The position numbers and the translations under genes are program-made. The notes under the pieces are model-generated. The model made no database searches, was not told the origin of the DNA, and saw nothing but the letters and a program-made list of their open reading frames with translations. A stretch of 64,000 nt of DNA from Nematocida parisii ERTm1 (Eukaryota > Microsporidia): NCBI RefSeq assembly GCF_000250985.1, contig NW_013524648.1, positions 248,001 to 312,000 of the forward strand. The letters run 5' to 3'. Position 1 is the stretch's first letter; every line of letters begins with the position of its first letter. Shown here one piece after another: positions 5,886 through 63,998 of the stretch.

Positions 5886-6482
5886 ATGGGTAGTGTGGTG
5901 AGTAATTTTCTTAGTGCATTCGTAAAGAAAACCCCGAAAAAAGTGCTTATGCTCGGATTGGATAATGCAGGAAAAACAACTATTCTGTACTTATTACACC
6001 TTAAAATGGTTGAGGGGGCGGACCCAACTACTGTTCCAACTGTTGGATTTAATGTGGAGACAATTAAAATAGGAAGTGTCAACATAACAGTATGGGACAT
6101 AGGTGGCCAGCACAAGATAAGATTATTATGGGAGTTTTACACGGATGGTCTATCTGGTATGGTTTATGTCATAGACATACAAGACTCTGCGCGGTGGGAT
6201 TCTGCAGTGTCAGAGCTAGAAAGAATGCTATCTAATGGAGGAAAGCCCAGTAAGTATCCAGTCCTTGTCATTGCAAATAAAATAGACAAGATACCAGAAT
6301 CAGAAATAGATGAAGTAAATAAGAACCTGTACGATAAACTAAACCCTAAGATACTATTTGCAGGTAGACCATGGAGAATTGTTACATGTTGTGCTCAAAT
6401 TTCACACATAAATACAATTACAGAGGGATTTATATGGCTGGCAGATAATTTGTTAGAAGGTCAGGAGACAAGCAGTAAATAG
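5886..6482 (+). CDS. ARF-family small GTPase
   Basis: 198 residues from ATG. Gly2 is available for N-myristoylation. The nucleotide-binding motifs are intact: P-loop GLDNAGKT at 24-31, switch-I PTVGFN at 51-56, switch-II WDIGGQ at 70-75 and NKID at 131-134. The family SAxxG motif is replaced by a TCCAQ segment, which is close to ARF1's 'TCATSG' type. ARF proteins recruit coats to Golgi and other membranes when GTP-bound. The order W-D-I-G-G-Q places it in the ARF/ARL branch rather than Ras/Rab. It is ~17 residues longer than ARF1, with an insertion near 'LFAGRPWRI' and a longer tail, so it may be an ARL rather than ARF1 itself. Confidence 0.9.
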
Positions 6483-15827: not shown

Positions 15828-15891
15828 ATTACACACAAATTTTAATAAACTATATCTTCTTATATAGTTTGAAGTATTTTATGGTTTGTAA

Positions 15892-15930
15892 GGCATAAAT
15901 AATATTTTATTTTTAATAAATTATGCATAG
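15892..15930 (-). promoter_or_regulatory. AT-rich dyad motif, copy 1
   Basis: On the minus strand, which is the sense of the downstream family gene, the copy begins CTATGCATAATTTATTAAAA and ends TTATTTATGCC, followed by TTACA. The ends form an imperfect dyad (GGCATAA / TTATGC). It lies 65 bases upstream of the ATG at 15827. Four similar copies occur in the window, all in the same orientation relative to the next downstream gene. Promoter element or small repeat; the function is an inference. Confidence 0.55.
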
Positions 15931-16170
15931 TTCACATGGTTTATAGATACTTCAAGAAGAAACAACCAATTAGCTAAACAAGAACATATATTTTTATTTA
16001 AAATTTTCTAGCGGCACGTATTCTATATATTTCATTATATTTAGACCCATCTATTTGATATTTTGAGAATCATTGAGTAGTTTCTCTTTCTGTATACAGC
16101 ATATTATTCAAAAACAGTACATTCCCACCACATATTATAAATGTAGTAGATGACTAATAAAGATGTTCTT
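15931..16170. other. AT-rich flank of the assembly gap
   Basis: AT-rich sequence with recognisable similarity to 11480-11650: an agaagaaacaaccaattagc-like stretch, then ATATTTAGAC, then CTTTCTGTATAC. It ends at a run of N. An ATG at 16153 opens only a few codons before the gap, so no gene can be claimed. Confidence 0.4.
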
Positions 16171-20022: not shown

Positions 20023-20027
20023 AGATC
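20023..20027. repeat. Left target-site duplication AGATC
   Basis: AGATC directly before the TG of the left LTR. The same five bases stand directly after the CA of the right LTR at 21803-21807. Confidence 0.85.
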
Positions 20028-20366
20028 TGTGGTGACACCACCACTCGGACGGGAGCCCCCGAGGGCGATCCGTCTGCGCGCCAGCTCGCGCGGTGATCCC
20101 GCCAAAGCAAAGGCCGGGATCTCTGAATCAGTATATCAACTTCCGACTATTTAACCGGAGCTCTTCCCCCAATTTAGGGGGAGACTCAGGGAAGCATCGA
20201 CGGCTTAACTTCAGCGCCAGGCCTAACACAACTGCGCCCGAGACTCCGTGTCCGCGCAGGCTTGGGCCGCTTCCTAAAGACAATAAAGAGCTCTCCCCTT
20301 TCACTCTCTTCTCTCTCTTGGCCACGTAGCAGGGCGGCGGTGGCGTTACTCCTCGTGAGTACGTCA
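20028..20366 (+). repeat. Left LTR (339 bp)
   Basis: TG...CA ends. It contains a TATA-like ACTATTTAA around 20150 and a polyadenylation signal AATAAAGAGCT near 20282, giving a U3-R-U5 layout. It differs from the right LTR only at 20323 (C here, T at 21759). Confidence 0.9.
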
Positions 20367-21463
20367 TAATGAATTCATTAATGTAAACTAGCCAGCCAAA
20401 ATAGCCCTGTGGGCAATGCGTAGTCGCATAGGACGGAGCAAGAGTAGTGAACTACTACTAGCCGCGCTCGGCATCCGATGACCAATATTACATCCCGGAG
20501 CCGGTCAATTGCGCCACAACTCAAGCTACCCAGACACAAGCTTCCTGATCCGCCACGTAGCCGCATGGGGGGCAACCCTAGCCGCCGTCATCGATCACAG
20601 CCAGGATCCATGACCATCCAGGCGACGTCTTGTGCGGTACGGGCACCACTAGAAATTTATTTTATCTCAATTTACCGTCACCCAACAGAGGCCTATGACA
20701 CTAGAACGAGGCTCATTCCCAGGCCGCCACGACGAACGGGCCCCTAGAGAATAGTTATCGGGCAGCATAGCGCCCCCACCAGATGGCACGCGCTATCGAC
20801 CCAGTTCACCATTATAACCTACACACACCAGGCAGAATCTACTTGGGCACTTCTGGATGCACCCATGGTGCCAACAACATATCTATTCGCAACTGCTAGC
20901 ACCACCGGATGGTCCGCAGCATGCCCTAGGCCGCAGCAAACCTGCCGCCCACGCACCTCCAGCAACACGACGCAGCGTCGCCTCCGAGGCCGGCGTCGCT
21001 CGAGGCAGCCTTAATCATCATTCATTTATCTTTATATCCAGACCCAGAGCAAGACCAGTCCTTCACGCAAACAGCACACAGCGGCCAGACCGCCTTCACT
21101 CAGCACCCAAGCGCCCACACACTAAGGGACACAAATCAAGAACACTATTACTGAGACCACACGATCCTACCGGTGGCAGAACACCACTACATCCAACGAC
21201 ACTATGAGAATCAGGACAGGAAAACCGGAGAGGAGCAGGGGAGCGCTCCAGTCTCCACACACGCGCCTTCGCGCACCAACCAACTACAATCATCCCACAG
21301 CTTTCCCAGGAGCACACCGACAGGCCCTTGGCTAGGTCTGAGTTCCAAACCATGCGCACTTGCCGCAACCAACATATCCATCTGGGATCCAACTCAAACA
21401 CCAGGGGTTTTGGGCAGAACCCACCGATACGCTTCGCTTCACCTTCCGCTAGGAGGGGCAGGA

Positions 21464-21802
21464 TGTGGTGACACCACCACTCGGACGGGAGCCCCCGAGG
21501 GCGATCCGTCTGCGCGCCAGCTCGCGCGGTGATCCCGCCAAAGCAAAGGCCGGGATCTCTGAATCAGTATATCAACTTCCGACTATTTAACCGGAGCTCT
21601 TCCCCCAATTTAGGGGGAGACTCAGGGAAGCATCGACGGCTTAACTTCAGCGCCAGGCCTAACACAACTGCGCCCGAGACTCCGTGTCCGCGCAGGCTTG
21701 GGCCGCTTCCTAAAGACAATAAAGAGCTCTCCCCTTTCACTCTCTTCTCTCTCTTGGCTACGTAGCAGGGCGGCGGTGGCGTTACTCCTCGTGAGTACGT
21801 CA
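21464..21802 (+). repeat. Right LTR (339 bp)
   Basis: The same length as the left LTR, with one mismatch. It ends 75 bases before the ATG of the gene at 21878, so its promoter or U5 end now forms the upstream region of that gene. Confidence 0.9.
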
Positions 21803-21807
21803 AGATC
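21803..21807. repeat. Right target-site duplication AGATC
   Basis: Matches 20023-20027 exactly. Five bases is the usual duplication size for Ty1/copia and Ty3/gypsy integrases. Confidence 0.85.
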
Positions 21808-53106: not shown

Positions 53107-53446
53107 TGACGTACTCACGAGGAGTAACGCCACCGCCGCCCTGCTACGTAGCCAAGAGAGAGAAGAGAGTGAAAGGGGAGAGCTCTTTATTGTCTTTAGG
53201 AAGCAGCCCAAGCCTGCGTGGACACAGAGTCCCGGGCGCAGTTGTGTTAGGCCTGGCGCTTACGTTAAGCCGTCGATGCTTCCCTGAGTCTCCCCCTAAA
53301 TTGGGGGAAGAGCTCCGGTTAAATAGTCGGAAGTTGATATACTGATTCAGCGATCCCGGCCTTTTGATTTGACGGGATCACCGCGCGAGCTGGCGCGCAA
53401 ACGGATCGCCCTCGAGGGCTCCCGTCCGAGTGGTGGTGTCACCATA
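53107..53446 (-). mobile_element. Solo LTR, second copy of the family (about 97% like the intact LTRs)
   Basis: On the minus strand it runs from TATGGTGACACC (the intact copies have TGTGGTGACACC) to GAGTACGTCA. It keeps ACTATTTAACC and AATAAAGAGC. Length 340 versus 339. By eye there are roughly a dozen differences from the complete element. No internal region is attached and the flanking five bases do not match, so the target duplication has been lost or the solo LTR arose by recombination between different elements. Confidence 0.85.
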
Positions 53447-58199: not shown

Positions 58200-58945
58200 G
58201 ATGTCAATAAACAAACTTTACTATTTATGATTTAAAGTCATTATAAATAATACACAGTTGACCTAAAAATAACACTTTTCTAACCAACAGCTCATAATTT
58301 AAGAGAAGTAGAAATAAGCATGCACTTTTCTCTTTCAGCAGCTATAACCCACATATTGGCATCACGCACTGTTTTTGTGGTTTAATATTTTGAACATCCC
58401 AAAATTCCTCAAAATACATATTCCTTTTGTTTATATGCTTAAGATGTGTATATGACCATAGTTTTATAATTATAATTAGCACTCTATTGAATACACCAAC
58501 AGCATCCAATGTTTATTTCAACACCAATTATCAATGTGAAATAAATATGGTGTCTGGCCATTCACATTCTTAAACTCATATTTTCCTTCTATGTATAATA
58601 AATATGGTTTTTCTACTCATTCTCTTTAGCTGTAAAATAAAAATAAATACGTATATAATTCTATTTAAATATAAAAGTGAAAGGCTTATTTATAAAAAAA
58701 TGTAAGGCATAAATAATATTTTATTTTAATAAATCATGCTTATATTATAGGAAATATATAAAAACTTTACATGAATAAACAGCATATGAATCATAGGAAA
58801 TGGGCAATAACGCCAATATAATCTAAATCAACTTCACATACTATATATTAATAAATTGCTTTATATCTAAAAAACTGCTATAAAGATTCTAATAATGTAA
58901 TAATAAAACATTTACATATTATTCAATAGTTTATTCTTAAGATTA
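58200..58945. other. AT-rich intergenic with dyad motif copy 4
   Basis: About 750 bases between the basic-protein gene start and the 3' end of the family gene. No gene. Only the dyad at 58706-58740 stands out. Confidence 0.4.
58706..58740 (-). promoter_or_regulatory. AT-rich dyad motif, copy 4
   Basis: In minus-strand sense it reads AGCATGATTTATTAAAAT and then ends TTATTTATGCC, followed by TTACA as in copies 1 and 5. It points toward the basic-protein gene at 58199. Confidence 0.5.
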
Positions 58946-61900
58946 TTAAAAGAAAGTGTTTAGGATATTATAGTGTATTCCGAGCTTAGACTTTGTGTAA
59001 TTAACATTTTTTATACATATATGTATTTTAGAGATATCTGATATTTCAGATGTATTTATATCTTGATGGGTCTTTATGAATTCAATGTTTCTTTTTGATG
59101 CAGGACTAAGCATATCATACATTCCATTATATTTACCAAAGAGCTCATCCATAAAAATTTTCATTCTTGAGCATAAAAGAGGAACTATATTACTCTTTCC
59201 TGTGCTTTTTCTTGTATATATGCATATTCCATAACGGAGCATATCCTGTGAAGCATGCTTTCTTTGGAGCATGTTTAAGAATGAGAAAATTATGTGAAAC
59301 TTAGTACTTCGCAGCTCACAATTTGTCCTCTTTCTAAAAGAAACACGGTCTAGATCTAATTCATAGTTAGTATACTCTCCTAGATCATATTGTTTTTTTA
59401 CATACCATGATATTTTCATTTTGTTTAATTCATAGGTTTTTTGCTTAATATTCATGGCATAGCAGTCGCAGTCTTCATACAGGCTGTTTATGCCTAGTAT
59501 GTAAAAATCACTATAATAATTTAGTTCCCTCTTATACATAGTAGCTAATTCTATAATTGTCTGTTTTCGATCTTCTTTCTTAACCATATAGTCTAACCAA
59601 CTAGAAAACTCAATAGGGACTAGATTTTGGTAGTCTGTTGTAAGTTGCTGAATTAAACAATTTTCTTTGTTTAAAATGTATGGGCCAATATGCACTGCCA
59701 ATGTGATAAATTTAGGAAGAAACAGTGGTATTCGTGGTACACTATCATTCGGCACATATCCATCAAATAACTTCTTTGCCTCAACTTCATCTTCTTCATA
59801 TGCTGTATTAATTGTCTCTTTACTAATAGGATTAAACTGTGCGAGCACAAAGTCATTAATTTTTATGTTCTCTTGAATATAGTAAAATATAACATCAAAT
59901 CCCAACTTGTCCATCTCTCCTATGGTTTTATTTATTTCACTGCCAATACTATCCGCTAACTTTCTTTTTTTCCTGTCATTATTGATAAAGCCAATCATTG
60001 ACCATGTTTTGTCCTTTCTATTATACTTAAATGGATATACATTGTTAACTAATGGCCGACCATATCGGGTTTTGGTATGGAATGTTTTTCTTACATGATT
60101 TGCAATATCATCTATTGTATGTATATAGTGATACTCTTTAGTCCCGTTACTATCAAGCATAAAAAACGGAAAATGCATAATATGCACACGATGTGCACTG
60201 TTATCTATAAGTTGGATATGGTAGTGATGTGAATAAGATAACACTGCGCTGTCTTTGTCCCTATAGCTATATATTATATCCAAGTTTGATATATCGTCTA
60301 ATATTTTTTTATTTGAAGATATAGCTTTTTTGGTATATTCAAATAAGAATTTGCATTTAACAAATGGTGTTTTTATAATAACGCCTTTTCCTTGATAGGT
60401 GGTTAGATTATCTCTAGAAAATTTTGTATAATTTTTCATAGCAAAATAGCTTAGGTTTCCCTGCACTGGATGGTGAGCGTTGCTTATACAAGAACTTGTA
60501 TTCGGGTTATATAAATATAAAGAATACCTATAAAAGCATATAAATATCTTATAAACCAAATTATACACATAAATGTCGCTATATTGATATAAAGATTTTT
60601 TTTTATCTTCTTGTATTTTTTTATATGACTCCTCAATTATTTTTTTTTGCGTATGAACCTCTCCATATAAGTACTCTATAATATAAAACTGATCGCACAT
60701 CTCTTTAACAATATCATTAAAAGATTTACTTGCAATTTTCTGCTTTACTAGATTAATTTCATCATACTGCATATAAAACAAGTCTTCATATATTTCAGGA
60801 ATGCTCAGAATCAGTAGAAGCTTCCGCTTTAAATCCAAGTCTTTCTGCAATTCTTCTGTATCTACATGGGTAGACTTTTGTATATGCTGAATTATGCAGG
60901 AGACCCACAGGCTTTCTGTATGCCACAGAAGGTTTATGTCTTTTTTAATGTATATGTCACCTAGTGTAACTTCATTTGGATTGAATCGCACTAATTTTCT
61001 ATCTAATTTAACTTTTTTCTTTTTGATATAGCAAGAGGAATAGTTCTTAGTTAAATACTTATACAGATTAGAACTCATTCCAGAATACCCCATATTGCAT
61101 TGTTTAAACATTTTATCCATATAATCTCTATTATTGCCTATAAAATCAATAAGTTCCAGCTTTGTGCTTATATTTTCTTTTTTAATCATATATAGCCCAC
61201 TCCATACAATTTTACGCTCTTTTATAGCATTCTTTATACTATCTATTAATTTTGAATATATTTTAATATTTACTTGTGATTTAACAAATGATGGTGGCTC
61301 TTGATGGGCCTGTTTGGCGACAGACAGTCTATAAATACATAGAGTGTCTATAATGTTCTTATACTCATTTGAATATTTTAAAACTGGGTCTTTAATACTG
61401 TTTTGATTTCTCTTATTTATTTCATCTGCACTTTTCTGTACTATATTTATAGATGGATTTTCTTTATTTATTTCTAGATATTGGGTGGCATTAAATAGCA
61501 TTTTGTTCATAGAAGTAGTTGGCTGTTCATATTTCATTGTCATTGTACTATTTGAAGCTACATCATTACATGCACTTGCATTGTAGTTTAATGGGGTTTC
61601 CACATGTGGTGCAGTGCTAAAATATGGATCTATAGTATTCGTATTAAATTCCTGTGGTGTAAATGTCTCTATTAAATCATCTATTAATGGTGTATCATAC
61701 AAATAACCATTCTGATTAATAAATGGATTAAGCAATTGTACACTGTTCTGTACGCAGGATGTATTATTAGAATATATATTTATGGTCTGAGGATTAAATG
61801 TTTCTGGAGCTGGCATTTCTATTTGATCCAATTCAACTGGAGGATTATTCGCATGACTTTCTGTGCAGATATAAGTATTATACAAGTCTTCCATATCTTC

Positions 61901-62128
61901 TATGTAATTGTTATTGTCATTGCTTAATTCGCTGTTACTAATAAAATTCTGGGCCGGGCAATACTCATTTATATTACTGCTTATATCAGTTATATGGCTT
62001 AAAAACTCTTTGTTTGATGTACATATGACAATATTTAATGTTTTTAGGGGATTTAAACCCAACCACATGCTTAAAATAAATAGTATTACTGGGCTTCTTT
62101 CTATTTTAGCTTTATTTGAAGCTTTCAT
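58946..62128 (-). CDS. Large secreted protein, member 2 of the three-gene family
   Basis: 1060 residues from ATG. The first ~35 residues have a basic start and a hydrophobic core (SPVILFILSMWLGL), acting as a signal peptide or anchor. Residues ~40-240 are Asn/Thr/Pro-rich and variable. Residues ~280 to the end align with the gene at 12858, with the same landmarks: T-L-G-D-I-Y-I-K-K-D, IPEIYED, HHYHIQL, then HFPFFM, YPFKYNRKDKTWSM, LAQFNPI, RIPLFLPKF, YYSDFYIL, CYAMNIKQ, LRYGICIYTR and KLGIHYNIL. No catalytic motif. The gene at 62490 is an even closer relative lying directly upstream in tandem. The dyad motif is only 10 bases before its ATG. Confidence 0.8.
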   Translation of the reverse strand: MKASNKAKIERSPVILFILSMWLGLNPLKTLNIVICTSNKEFLSHITDISSNINEYCPAQNFISNSELSNDNNNYIEDMEDLYNTYICTESHANNPPVELDQIEMPAPETFNPQTINIYSNNTSCVQNSVQLLNPFINQNGYLYDTPLIDDLIETFTPQEFNTNTIDPYFSTAPHVETPLNYNASACNDVASNSTMTMKYEQPTTSMNKMLFNATQYLEINKENPSINIVQKSADEINKRNQNSIKDPVLKYSNEYKNIIDTLCIYRLSVAKQAHQEPPSFVKSQVNIKIYSKLIDSIKNAIKERKIVWSGLYMIKKENISTKLELIDFIGNNRDYMDKMFKQCNMGYSGMSSNLYKYLTKNYSSCYIKKKKVKLDRKLVRFNPNEVTLGDIYIKKDINLLWHTESLWVSCIIQHIQKSTHVDTEELQKDLDLKRKLLLILSIPEIYEDLFYMQYDEINLVKQKIASKSFNDIVKEMCDQFYIIEYLYGEVHTQKKIIEESYKKIQEDKKKSLYQYSDIYVYNLVYKIFICFYRYSLYLYNPNTSSCISNAHHPVQGNLSYFAMKNYTKFSRDNLTTYQGKGVIIKTPFVKCKFLFEYTKKAISSNKKILDDISNLDIIYSYRDKDSAVLSYSHHYHIQLIDNSAHRVHIMHFPFFMLDSNGTKEYHYIHTIDDIANHVRKTFHTKTRYGRPLVNNVYPFKYNRKDKTWSMIGFINNDRKKRKLADSIGSEINKTIGEMDKLGFDVIFYYIQENIKINDFVLAQFNPISKETINTAYEEDEVEAKKLFDGYVPNDSVPRIPLFLPKFITLAVHIGPYILNKENCLIQQLTTDYQNLVPIEFSSWLDYMVKKEDRKQTIIELATMYKRELNYYSDFYILGINSLYEDCDCYAMNIKQKTYELNKMKISWYVKKQYDLGEYTNYELDLDRVSFRKRTNCELRSTKFHIIFSFLNMLQRKHASQDMLRYGICIYTRKSTGKSNIVPLLCSRMKIFMDELFGKYNGMYDMLSPASKRNIEFIKTHQDINTSEISDISKIHICIKNVNYTKSKLGIHYNILNTFF

Positions 62129-62137
62129 ATTCTGTAA

Positions 62138-62171
62138 GGCATAAATAATATTTATTTTAAATAAATCATAA
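62138..62171 (-). promoter_or_regulatory. AT-rich dyad motif, copy 5
   Basis: In minus-strand sense: TTATGATTTATTTAAAAT, then TTATTTATGCC, followed by TTACA and, 10 bases on, the family gene's ATG at 62128. The closest of the five to a start codon. Confidence 0.55.
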
Positions 62172-62489
62172 CTAGATAATATTTAATAAAAGTAAAAAAG
62201 AATAAAGATAATAAATAGTGAATTAACTTTATTATTTACATGCTTTCTTACCTGCATATACAGATACAGAATAAAGTATATGATGCATAAAGAAGAGAAT
62301 ATCATATACTCTGTAATATTTCCTTGTTATAAAAATAGAACCACATAGGCCAGTTACTTTTTTCTAGAGTTATTTTAGAAGAATACATAAATAAACCATT
62401 CCCATGTTCTCTAACAATCATTGCTTTGGATAGTAATAGTATTTAAATGGTATTTGTTTATTCAACTGCACTGTTGATTCTTAAGGTTA
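62172..62489. other. AT-rich intergenic between tandem family genes
   Basis: About 320 bases, no gene. It holds the 3' end of the partial paralog to the right. Confidence 0.4.
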
Positions 62490-63998
62490 TTAAAGAACCG
62501 CATTTAAAATATTATAGTGTAGGCCAAGCTTAGATTTTGTGTAATTGATATTCTTTACACATATATGTATTTTAGAAACATCCGGAGGAATATATGTGGT
62601 TTGGTTTATGTATGCCTTTAAATCCTTAATATTTTCTTTCAGTGTAGGGCTAAGCATAGAACGCATTTTATTGTTTTTAGTTAATAATCCATTCATGCGG
62701 GTTTTCATTTCTGGGCAGGTAAGAGGAATTGTAAAACTTTGATCGGCGCTTTTTCTTGTATATATGCATGTTCCATAACAAAGCATATCTTGTGAGACAT
62801 GCTTTCTTTGGAGCATATCTAAAAATAGGGATAAGGTTTGGCGTTTTGTCATTTTCTTTAATCCATCTGTAGTACAATTGTTACTATTTGGCAATAGGCA
62901 CAGCTCGTAGTTGGTGTATTCTCCTATATTAAATTGTTTTTTTACGATCCATAATATTTTTATAATATTGCTGTATTCGAATTTTATTTGCTGAATCTCC
63001 ATGGCATAACAGTCATAGTCCTCATATGGGGTATTTTTGTCTAATATGCAGAAATCGCTGTAATAATGTATTTCATGCCTATTTTTTTTAAGTATGTCTA
63101 TAATTGTTAGGCTTTGATCTTTTTTTTCAGTTATAGAATCTAGCGAATTGGAAAACTCAATAGGAACTAGGTCTTGATAGTCTAATAGATTTTTAGTTTC
63201 ATACTCTTCCGACTTTAAAACATAAGAGCCAGAGTGCACTGCTGATATAGTTAGTTTAGATAGGAATAGTGGTATTCGTGGAGCACCAACATTTGGCTCA
63301 TATCCATTGAATAGCTTCTTTGCTTCTTCCTGGTTTTCTTTGTACGCTGCATTAACTACTTCTACGCCTATTGGATTGAACTGGGCAAATACAAACGCCG
63401 TTTTTTCTATATTCTCTTGAATGTAGTAAAACACAATATCAAAGCCCAGCCTATCCATCTCTTCTATGGTTTTATCCATGTCTGCACTGTTTTTACCTAA
63501 TATTTTGCTGTTTTGGCCCTTTTTAGTACCTTTATTTTCAACAGGCAAAGTAATAATTGACCAGGTTTTGCTTTTTCTGTTATATTTGAATGGATAGATA
63601 TTATTGGTCCATGTATATTTAGTATATAAACAGAGGTGTGTTATTTTCTGTATGTACTCTAAAATCGTTTCAATTGTATGGATATAATGATATGTTATAA
63701 CATTGTCTTTTTTACCTACAAAAAATGGAAGATGTATAACGTGAACACGATGTGCGCGGTTGTCTACAAGCTGAACATGATAGTGGTTCGAATATGAGAG
63801 TTCAACAATATTTTTTTGTATATTATTACATTCTATAGTTTTATATAATATATTATCTAAAAACCTTGGTTTTAAATCATCCTTATTAGAGTATTTAAAT
63901 GAAATGGTAAAGGCATTGTAATGGGCCAACATAACGGTGGCGGCGCCTCGATATATGGATATATCATTGTCTGGGCGTGGCGTATATTGCTTTATAGA
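62490..63998 (-). CDS. Partial large secreted-family protein, member 3 (5' end outside window)
   Basis: The C-terminal part of a third family member. The frame stays open to the right edge of the window. An internal Met (at 63932) is not the start, because the sequence upstream of it (D-I-S-I-Y-R-G-A-A) still aligns with members 1 and 2 (T-T-Y-Q-G-K in member 2). Clear landmarks are SNHYHVQLVDN, then HLPFFV, YPFKYNRKSKTWSI, FAQFNPI, RIPLFLSKL, YYSDFCIL, CYAMEIQQ, LCYGTCIYTRK and KLGLHYNIL at the end. By comparison with member 2, roughly 580-600 N-terminal residues, including the signal peptide, lie outside. Much closer to member 2 than to member 1, which suggests a recent tandem duplication. 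Confidence 0.8.
   Translation of the reverse strand, partial: SIKQYTPRPDNDISIYRGAATVMLAHYNAFTISFKYSNKDDLKPRFLDNILYKTIECNNIQKNIVELSYSNHYHVQLVDNRAHRVHVIHLPFFVGKKDNVITYHYIHTIETILEYIQKITHLCLYTKYTWTNNIYPFKYNRKSKTWSIITLPVENKGTKKGQNSKILGKNSADMDKTIEEMDRLGFDIVFYYIQENIEKTAFVFAQFNPIGVEVVNAAYKENQEEAKKLFNGYEPNVGAPRIPLFLSKLTISAVHSGSYVLKSEEYETKNLLDYQDLVPIEFSNSLDSITEKKDQSLTIIDILKKNRHEIHYYSDFCILDKNTPYEDYDCYAMEIQQIKFEYSNIIKILWIVKKQFNIGEYTNYELCLLPNSNNCTTDGLKKMTKRQTLSLFLDMLQRKHVSQDMLCYGTCIYTRKSADQSFTIPLTCPEMKTRMNGLLTKNNKMRSMLSPTLKENIKDLKAYINQTTYIPPDVSKIHICVKNINYTKSKLGLHYNILNAVL

What the first reader, a model, noticed from the sequence alone, without database searches (positions are those of the whole stretch)
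20028..21802. A complete but gene-less LTR retroelement in a microsporidian genome
LTRs of 339 bp with TG/CA ends, a 5-bp target duplication and a polypurine tract show a true integrase-mediated insertion, with only one mismatch between LTRs (20323 C versus 21759 T), hence recent. Yet the 1.1-kb interior has no gag/pol-like frame, so it must use another element's enzymes. This resembles the TRIM/SMART class known from plants and some fungi. I am not aware of such an element being described in microsporidia, but I cannot check.
Basis: partly seen in the sequence, partly recalled or inferred. Interest (0 to 1): 0.8.

Follow-up and report, generated by a model that had tools for sequence, protein, structure and literature searches.

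The report
Gene-less LTR retroelement in Nematocida
A worm-infecting microsporidian carries one recently inserted jumping element that has the end repeats of a retrotransposon but no genes and no recognisable starting site for copying, plus about forty lone copies of its end repeat, so it probably had to borrow enzymes made by another element.

Summary
Window 20028-21802 is a 1775-bp LTR retroelement with 339-bp TG...CA repeats (338/339 identical), an AGATC target duplication and a purine tract. Its 1097-bp interior has no frame longer than chance and no credible Pfam or pol match. The genome is Nematocida parisii or a very close sibling. The assembly holds 38 other scored LTR copies, 73.6-99.7% identical, without the interior beside them. 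They look like solo LTRs; 13 of 36 checked keep an exact 5-bp duplication. No RT or integrase match lies within 8 kb of any scored copy, so recent mobilisation in trans is the best reading.

First, no tRNA primer-binding site was found after the 5' LTR, tested against 53 tRNA genes of the same genome with a Ty3 element as positive control. Second, the LTR copies form a star around one GC-rich sequence and decay individually towards AT: the source LTR seems to have stayed nearly unchanged.

It works like a TRIM-type element but fails the primer-site feature, and its non-coding form is single-copy, so I do not file it as a TRIM. It is a new member of a known kind. I found no report of one in microsporidia in capped searches.

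The parts
20023..20027 (.). left copy of the 5-bp target-site duplication (AGATC)
20028..20366 (+). 5' LTR, 339 bp, TG...CA, 59% G+C
20282..20287 (+). AATAAA in the 5' LTR, polyadenylation-signal-like (motif recalled); repeated at 21718-21723
   Evidence: sequence
20367..20388 (+). place where a tRNA primer-binding site is expected: none found; begins with the palindrome TAATGAATTCATTA
20367..21463 (+). interior, 1097 bp, 55% G+C, single copy in the genome, no coding signal
21451..21463 (+). polypurine tract (12 of 13 purines) abutting the 3' LTR
21464..21802 (+). 3' LTR, 338/339 identical to the 5' LTR, identical to solo LTR L027 (C2)
21803..21807 (.). right copy of the target-site duplication (AGATC)
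53107..53444 (-). second copy of the same LTR in the window, without interior (96% identical, no exact duplication)
   Evidence: L036

Best explanation
This is a non-coding LTR retroelement. Shown from sequence: its structure, its recent integration, no detectable gene, a single-copy interior, 38 other scored copies of its LTR that look like solos, and no tRNA primer-binding site found. Inferred: it was transcribed from its own LTR, and its RNA was packaged, reverse-transcribed and integrated by proteins of another element. That provider is either a relative with the same LTRs that is lost from (or absent in) this assembly, or the genome's complete-looking Ty3/gypsy element (L019). Full copies are then removed by LTR-LTR recombination, which leaves solo LTRs that decay towards AT. 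Because no primer site is seen, the cDNA was either primed in an unusual way or begun on a co-packaged RNA that had a primer site. This copy may therefore be an end product that cannot move again.
For: LTR pair, target duplication and purine tract. 40 scored LTR copies of 50 candidates, a lower bound. Interior at one place only. 13 of 36 fetched solo LTRs have an exact 5-bp duplication. Non-coding tests. No hit of 60 of the 69 fetched RT proteins in the element or the window. The nearest RT or integrase match to any scored LTR is 8.3 kb away (from the tables). Of four same-strand LTR pairs under 10 kb, one is this element. Two others include a copy with its own exact duplication (L047). The last encloses an unrelated 476-aa frame with no hit from those 60 RT proteins. 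A possible donor exists: L019, a 1146-aa frame with RT, RNase H, H2C2 and integrase domains, 49-bp LTRs, target duplication TTTAT and a 15-nt tRNA-Pro primer site.
Against: No sequence link joins this element to L019: no BLAST match at E up to 1e-3 between the LTR or interior and L019-L026, and the LTR ends share only TGT...CA. The missing primer site argues that this copy could not have been copied from an RNA exactly like itself by the usual route. With one intact copy, the interior seen here need not be the family's usual interior. 23 of 36 solo LTRs lack an exact duplication, some of them 97% identical copies such as L032 and L033.
Confidence: 0.8

Rival explanations
1. A one-off product (compatible with trans-mobilisation of this one RNA): during reverse transcription of a coding relative with the same LTRs, a template switch or deletion put unrelated or leftover sequence between the LTRs. 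There is no gene-less family; the solo LTRs come from coding elements now gone.
For: Interior is single-copy, no primer site was found, and nothing shows what the other 38 copies once enclosed.
Against: No source for the interior sequence in this genome, in E. coli genomes or in plasmids (no eukaryote collection could be searched). Its high G+C (55%) resembles the LTR (59%) in a 33% window, which fits one long-standing unit.
Confidence: 0.4
2. The element arrived as a coding copy and its interior was replaced or lost after integration, keeping LTRs and target duplication intact.
For: The junction after the 5' LTR lacks the expected primer site.
Against: The LTRs differ at 1 of 339 sites, leaving little time. 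The purine tract is still in place at the 3' junction.
Confidence: 0.1
3. The interior encodes a small, unrecognised Gag-like protein.
For: Frames of 98-129 codons exist on the + strand.
Against: Frame lengths equal those of shuffles. Pfam shows nothing above cut-off in 10 of 14 frames. The 129-aa frame, the only one so searched, has no relative at E up to 1e-3 among 5.8 billion proteins, though that search needs shared 5-residue words.
Confidence: 0.04
4. Assembly error (a collapsed or truncated coding element).
For: Reads could not be inspected.
Against: Matching target duplications at both ends, a purine tract against the 3' LTR, and a unique interior that offers no repeat to collapse on.
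Confidence: 0.04

Closest known systems
TRIM elements (terminal-repeat retrotransposons in miniature; plants, some fungi)
   Same: Short, gene-less, direct LTRs, presumed trans-mobilisation; TG...CA, 5-bp duplication and purine tract as in LTR elements generally.
   Different: No tRNA primer site found. 1775 bp is longer than the 500-900 bp given in PMC3281118 (passages; other authors may draw the line elsewhere). Non-coding form single-copy here. The host is a microsporidian.
SMART elements such as FRetro129 (PMC3281118, passages)
   Same: Non-coding LTR element with solo LTRs and 5-bp duplications.
   Different: FRetro129 is 292 bp with 85-bp LTRs and shares primer site and purine tract with its putative partner FRetro64. 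No such partner was found here.
LARD elements
   Same: Non-coding LTR derivatives without a gag/pol frame.
   Different: LARDs are described as more than 8 kb in PMC3281118 (passages). This is 1.8 kb.
Ty3/gypsy element at L019 of the same genome (protein 100% to N. parisii NEPAR06_2421)
   Same: LTR retroelement in the same genome with a 5-bp duplication; possible enzyme donor.
   Different: 49-bp AT-rich LTRs, tRNA-Pro primer site, coding. No sequence similarity to this element at E up to 1e-3.

Membership tests
LTR retroelement (general) | Paired near-identical direct LTRs with TG...CA ends and a target-site duplication | tested here: met
LTR retroelement (general) | Polypurine tract at the 3' LTR | tested here: met
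   12 of 13 purines at 21451-21463
LTR retroelement (general) | Primer-binding site after the 5' LTR | tested here: not met
   53 tRNAs of the same genome: best ungapped complementarity scores 7 against a shuffle median of 8; the best 12-nt comparison with a tRNA 3' end (Met, 12 nt inside) has 4 mismatches. No match of 7 nt or more to a tRNA 3' end within the interior on the + strand. No self-priming duplex beyond chance.
TRIM | Gene-less interior | tested here: met
TRIM | Primer-binding site kept (feature recalled; shown for SMART/FRetro129 in PMC3281118) | tested here: not met
TRIM | Non-coding form in several copies | tested here: not met
   interior at 1 place; solo LTRs do not tell what they enclosed
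TRIM | Size 500-900 bp with 100-350-bp repeats (as worded in PMC3281118) | tested here: not met
   1775 bp total; the 339-bp LTR is within the range
TRIM | Mobilised by another element | not testable with these tools
   inferred only
SMART (FRetro129-like) | Very small size with short LTRs, and an autonomous partner sharing primer site and purine tract | tested here: not met
LARD | Large non-coding interior | tested here: not met
   interior 1097 bp

The most novel reading that the evidence does not exclude
A mobile LTR family that multiplies without a tRNA primer-binding site and without genes. It would use a priming route not known for LTR elements, or primer activity lent by a co-packaged RNA. 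Its source sequence is held GC-rich and almost unchanged while dozens of copies decay around it, perhaps because the source lives outside this lineage and re-enters it.
Probability: 0.12. Interest if true: 0.7.

Novelty: new member of a known kind. Interest (0 to 1): 0.42.

Why it matters
Microsporidia have some of the most reduced eukaryotic genomes. I found no description of a non-coding LTR element in them in searches and in the passages read. Those lists were partly capped and only passages were read; one survey of 625 fungal genomes (PMC6416283, passages) counts non-autonomous LTR elements over fungi as a class. If trans-mobilisation is right, even a 4-Mb genome supports parasites of its parasites. 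The ratio of 38 scored solo LTRs to one intact element points to very effective removal by LTR-LTR recombination. The missing primer site makes a concrete question of how such a copy was made.

Tried and rejected
Half-tRNA (copia-type) priming: complementarity to whole tRNAs is no better than shuffles. Tf1-type self-priming: the best duplex with the LTR is -5.7 kcal/mol against a shuffle median minimum of -6.7, and no exact complement of 7 nt or more was found. Structural RNA in the element: only two sub-threshold Rfam hits, one in each LTR. RNA structure of the interior: not significant (first 934 nt, z -1.4, 2 of 20 shuffles as good). Targeting to tRNA genes: 0 of 39 LTR places lie within 2 kb of a tRNA gene, uniform expectation 1.9, not significant. 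Shared targets of the 339-bp and 49-bp LTRs: 5 of 39 within 1 kb against 1.6 expected under uniform placement (maximum 5 in 300 draws); 90 of the 96 places were used (L019's second LTR and five places on C9 and C10 were left out), and the null ignores gene density, so I draw no conclusion. A second gene-less element with 49-bp LTRs at C2:497956-499466: rejected, the two copies share only 29 bp and frames of 244 and 199 aa lie in that stretch. The close 49-bp pair in L022: read as two separate insertions. A same-strand pair of our LTR at C6:301356/304513: rejected. A relative in viral contigs: none for the L019 protein or a 20-nt LTR pattern. A RIP-like process: changes are GC>AT biased but include many transversions, and CpG sites change most, so ordinary AT-biased decay fits better. 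The microsporidian rRNA model gave no hit in the assembly, so the host was named from proteins. L021 and the LTR start both contain TGGTGACA, an 8-nt match to tRNA-Leu 3' ends. I judge this chance: it lies inside the LTR, and I expect about 0.15 such matches in 339 bp (own estimate, no call). Not searched: phage records and the bacterial genome-contig collection with the interior.

Full report
Observation. The LTRs at 20028-20366 and 21464-21802 differ at one of 339 positions. AGATC flanks both ends, and a purine tract abuts the 3' LTR. The difference appears private to the 5' LTR: the 3' LTR is identical to a solo LTR on contig C2 (L027), and the five copies compared base by base (L027, L028, L029, L032, L033) all carry the 3' LTR's base there.

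Host. The assembly holds 3,978,357 bases in 11 contigs. A window protein carries the Pfam domain HTH_micro, and its best database cluster is 97% identical to a protein of Nematocida sp. AWRm78, with N. ausubeli next at 61%. The polyprotein of another retroelement in the same genome is 100% identical to N. parisii NEPAR06_2421 over the 767 residues searched. I call the host N. parisii or a very close sibling. The microsporidian small-subunit rRNA model found nothing in the assembly.

Genome-wide survey. The LTR has 40 scored copies, a lower bound because 40 of 50 candidates were scored; two of them are the element's own. The interior has one place. I looked at 36 of the other 38 with flanks: 16 with about 2.5 kb (one cut short by a contig end) and 20 with about 80 bp. 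The last two were fetched later (duplications not examined there). Identity runs from 73.6 to 99.7%. Exact 5-bp duplications flank 13 of 36; 23 of 36 lack one. One copy (L047) sits inside an older 49-bp LTR of another family. L038 and L043 share their left flank, and L060 and L061 share both flanks, which suggests later duplication or recombination. No copy other than the window's has interior sequence beside it. No RT or integrase match lies within 8 kb of a scored LTR; the nearest is 8.3 kb away. Four same-strand LTR pairs lie under 10 kb apart. One is this element. Two share L047, which has its own exact duplication. The last (C6) encloses AT-rich DNA with an unrelated 476-aa frame.

No genes. 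Stop-free frames are as long as in shuffled sequence. Pfam at E up to 10 gives only two chance-level matches below cut-off in 10 of the 14 frames touching the interior; the other four frames were not scanned. The 129-aa frame has no relatives. 60 of the 69 reverse-transcriptase proteins found match neither the element nor the window (the other nine were not used). The interior has no match in E. coli genomes or plasmids. No collection of nematode or other eukaryote DNA was available, so a eukaryote donor was not tested.

Primer site. The tRNA model found 53 places, and ARAGORN called a tRNA gene in all 53. The best complementarity of the region around and after the 5' LTR end to any of them is 7, below the shuffle median of 8. 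No 3'-end match of 7 nt or more lies in the + strand of the interior. The same script finds a 15-nt tRNA-Pro(TGG) site directly after the 5' LTR of the L019 element, so the method works in this genome. Self-priming finds no support.

Possible enzyme donors. Six RVT_1 and three integrase-core matches exist in the genome, and only on C1 near 38-40 kb do the two kinds lie together. That frame (L019) carries RT, RNase H, H2C2 and integrase domains (where 7 frames from 6 of the 8 loci were scanned), a zinc knuckle and YMDD, but no D-T/S-G protease motif. Its LTRs are 49 bp, with a TTTAT duplication. A pattern of its first 26 nt has 96 places with up to 3 mismatches, 34 of them exact, and none for the reversed control. 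It shares no sequence with the window element, so a functional link is unproven.

A frozen, GC-rich source. Over the 36 copies, G+C falls with divergence (r = 0.91). Against the current LTR their changes are mostly GC to AT, for example 63 to 10 in L041. In the tree of 38 LTRs, end branches sum to 3.62 and inner branches to 0.55 changes per site. Few inner branches are well supported (4 of 34 starred), and the bootstrap had not settled. Only 9 of 339 positions are shared by 70% or more of the nine oldest copies against the current LTR; two of those nine are duplicates of each other. The copies thus seem to have decayed individually from almost one sequence. The master-gene pattern of SINEs (recalled) is a known analogue. 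Selection on the LTR, whose RNA folds better than 100 of 100 shuffles (z -2.8), is one reading; a source outside this lineage is another. Caveat: copies were found by likeness to the current LTR, so lineages with a changed source would be missed.

Literature. Only passages were read in all papers named here. Parisot et al. 2014 (PMC4202319) list four LTR families for N. parisii, with no occurrence of 'non-autonomous', 'nonautonomous' or 'solo' in the text. PMC10393165 on Nematocida genomes has no occurrence of 'transpos' or 'LTR'. PMC13174016 and PMC12558613 treat transposable elements in other microsporidia; the first has no occurrence of 'non-autonomous'. PMC3248453 on LTR elements in fungi has no occurrence of 'microsporidia'. 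PMC6416283 counts non-autonomous LTR elements over 625 fungal genomes as a class, and its one mention of Microsporidia concerns genome compactness. PMC5689174 reports TRIM and LARD in three of five basidiomycete genomes. Searches (complete lists of 7, 4 and 8 papers; the top 25, 25 and 8 of much longer lists) show no title on a gene-less LTR element in microsporidia. Subscription papers and supplementary files were not searched.

Verdict. This is a real, recent, gene-less LTR element and the only intact one of its family found in this assembly. It works like a TRIM-type element but does not meet that definition. Whether it represents a lineage or a one-off product is open.

Noticed in passing
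L019:3912-7472 (G000:C1:37411-40971): A complete-looking Ty3/gypsy element with identical LTRs of only 49 bp, tRNA-Pro primer site and one 1146-aa gag-pol-like frame. 96 places in the 4-Mb genome match the first 26 nt of its LTR with up to 3 mismatches. Its LTR is shorter than the 85-bp repeats of FRetro129, the smallest LTR retrotransposon known to PMC3281118 in 2012.
   Followed up: partly
window 15887-15935 (+), 58701 (+), 62133 (+), 38744 (-): Copies or relics of the 49-bp LTR. The copy at 15887 has the duplication TGGTT.
   Followed up: partly
window 58929-63482: Tandem duplication: 71-82% identical blocks spaced about 3.54 kb, covering two frames on the minus strand (58946-62128 and 62490-63932), each with a 49-bp LTR relic beyond its 3' end.
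   Followed up: no
L021:2634-2849 and 6205-6420: 216-bp direct repeats (97.7%) around a region with RT and RNase H. The repeat holds an 11-nt tRNA-Leu primer-site-like stretch in its middle, so its true LTR ends are unclear.
   Followed up: partly
L038/L043 and L060/L061: Pairs of solo LTRs share one or both flanks, suggesting segmental duplication or recombination between solo LTRs.
   Followed up: partly
   Followed up: no
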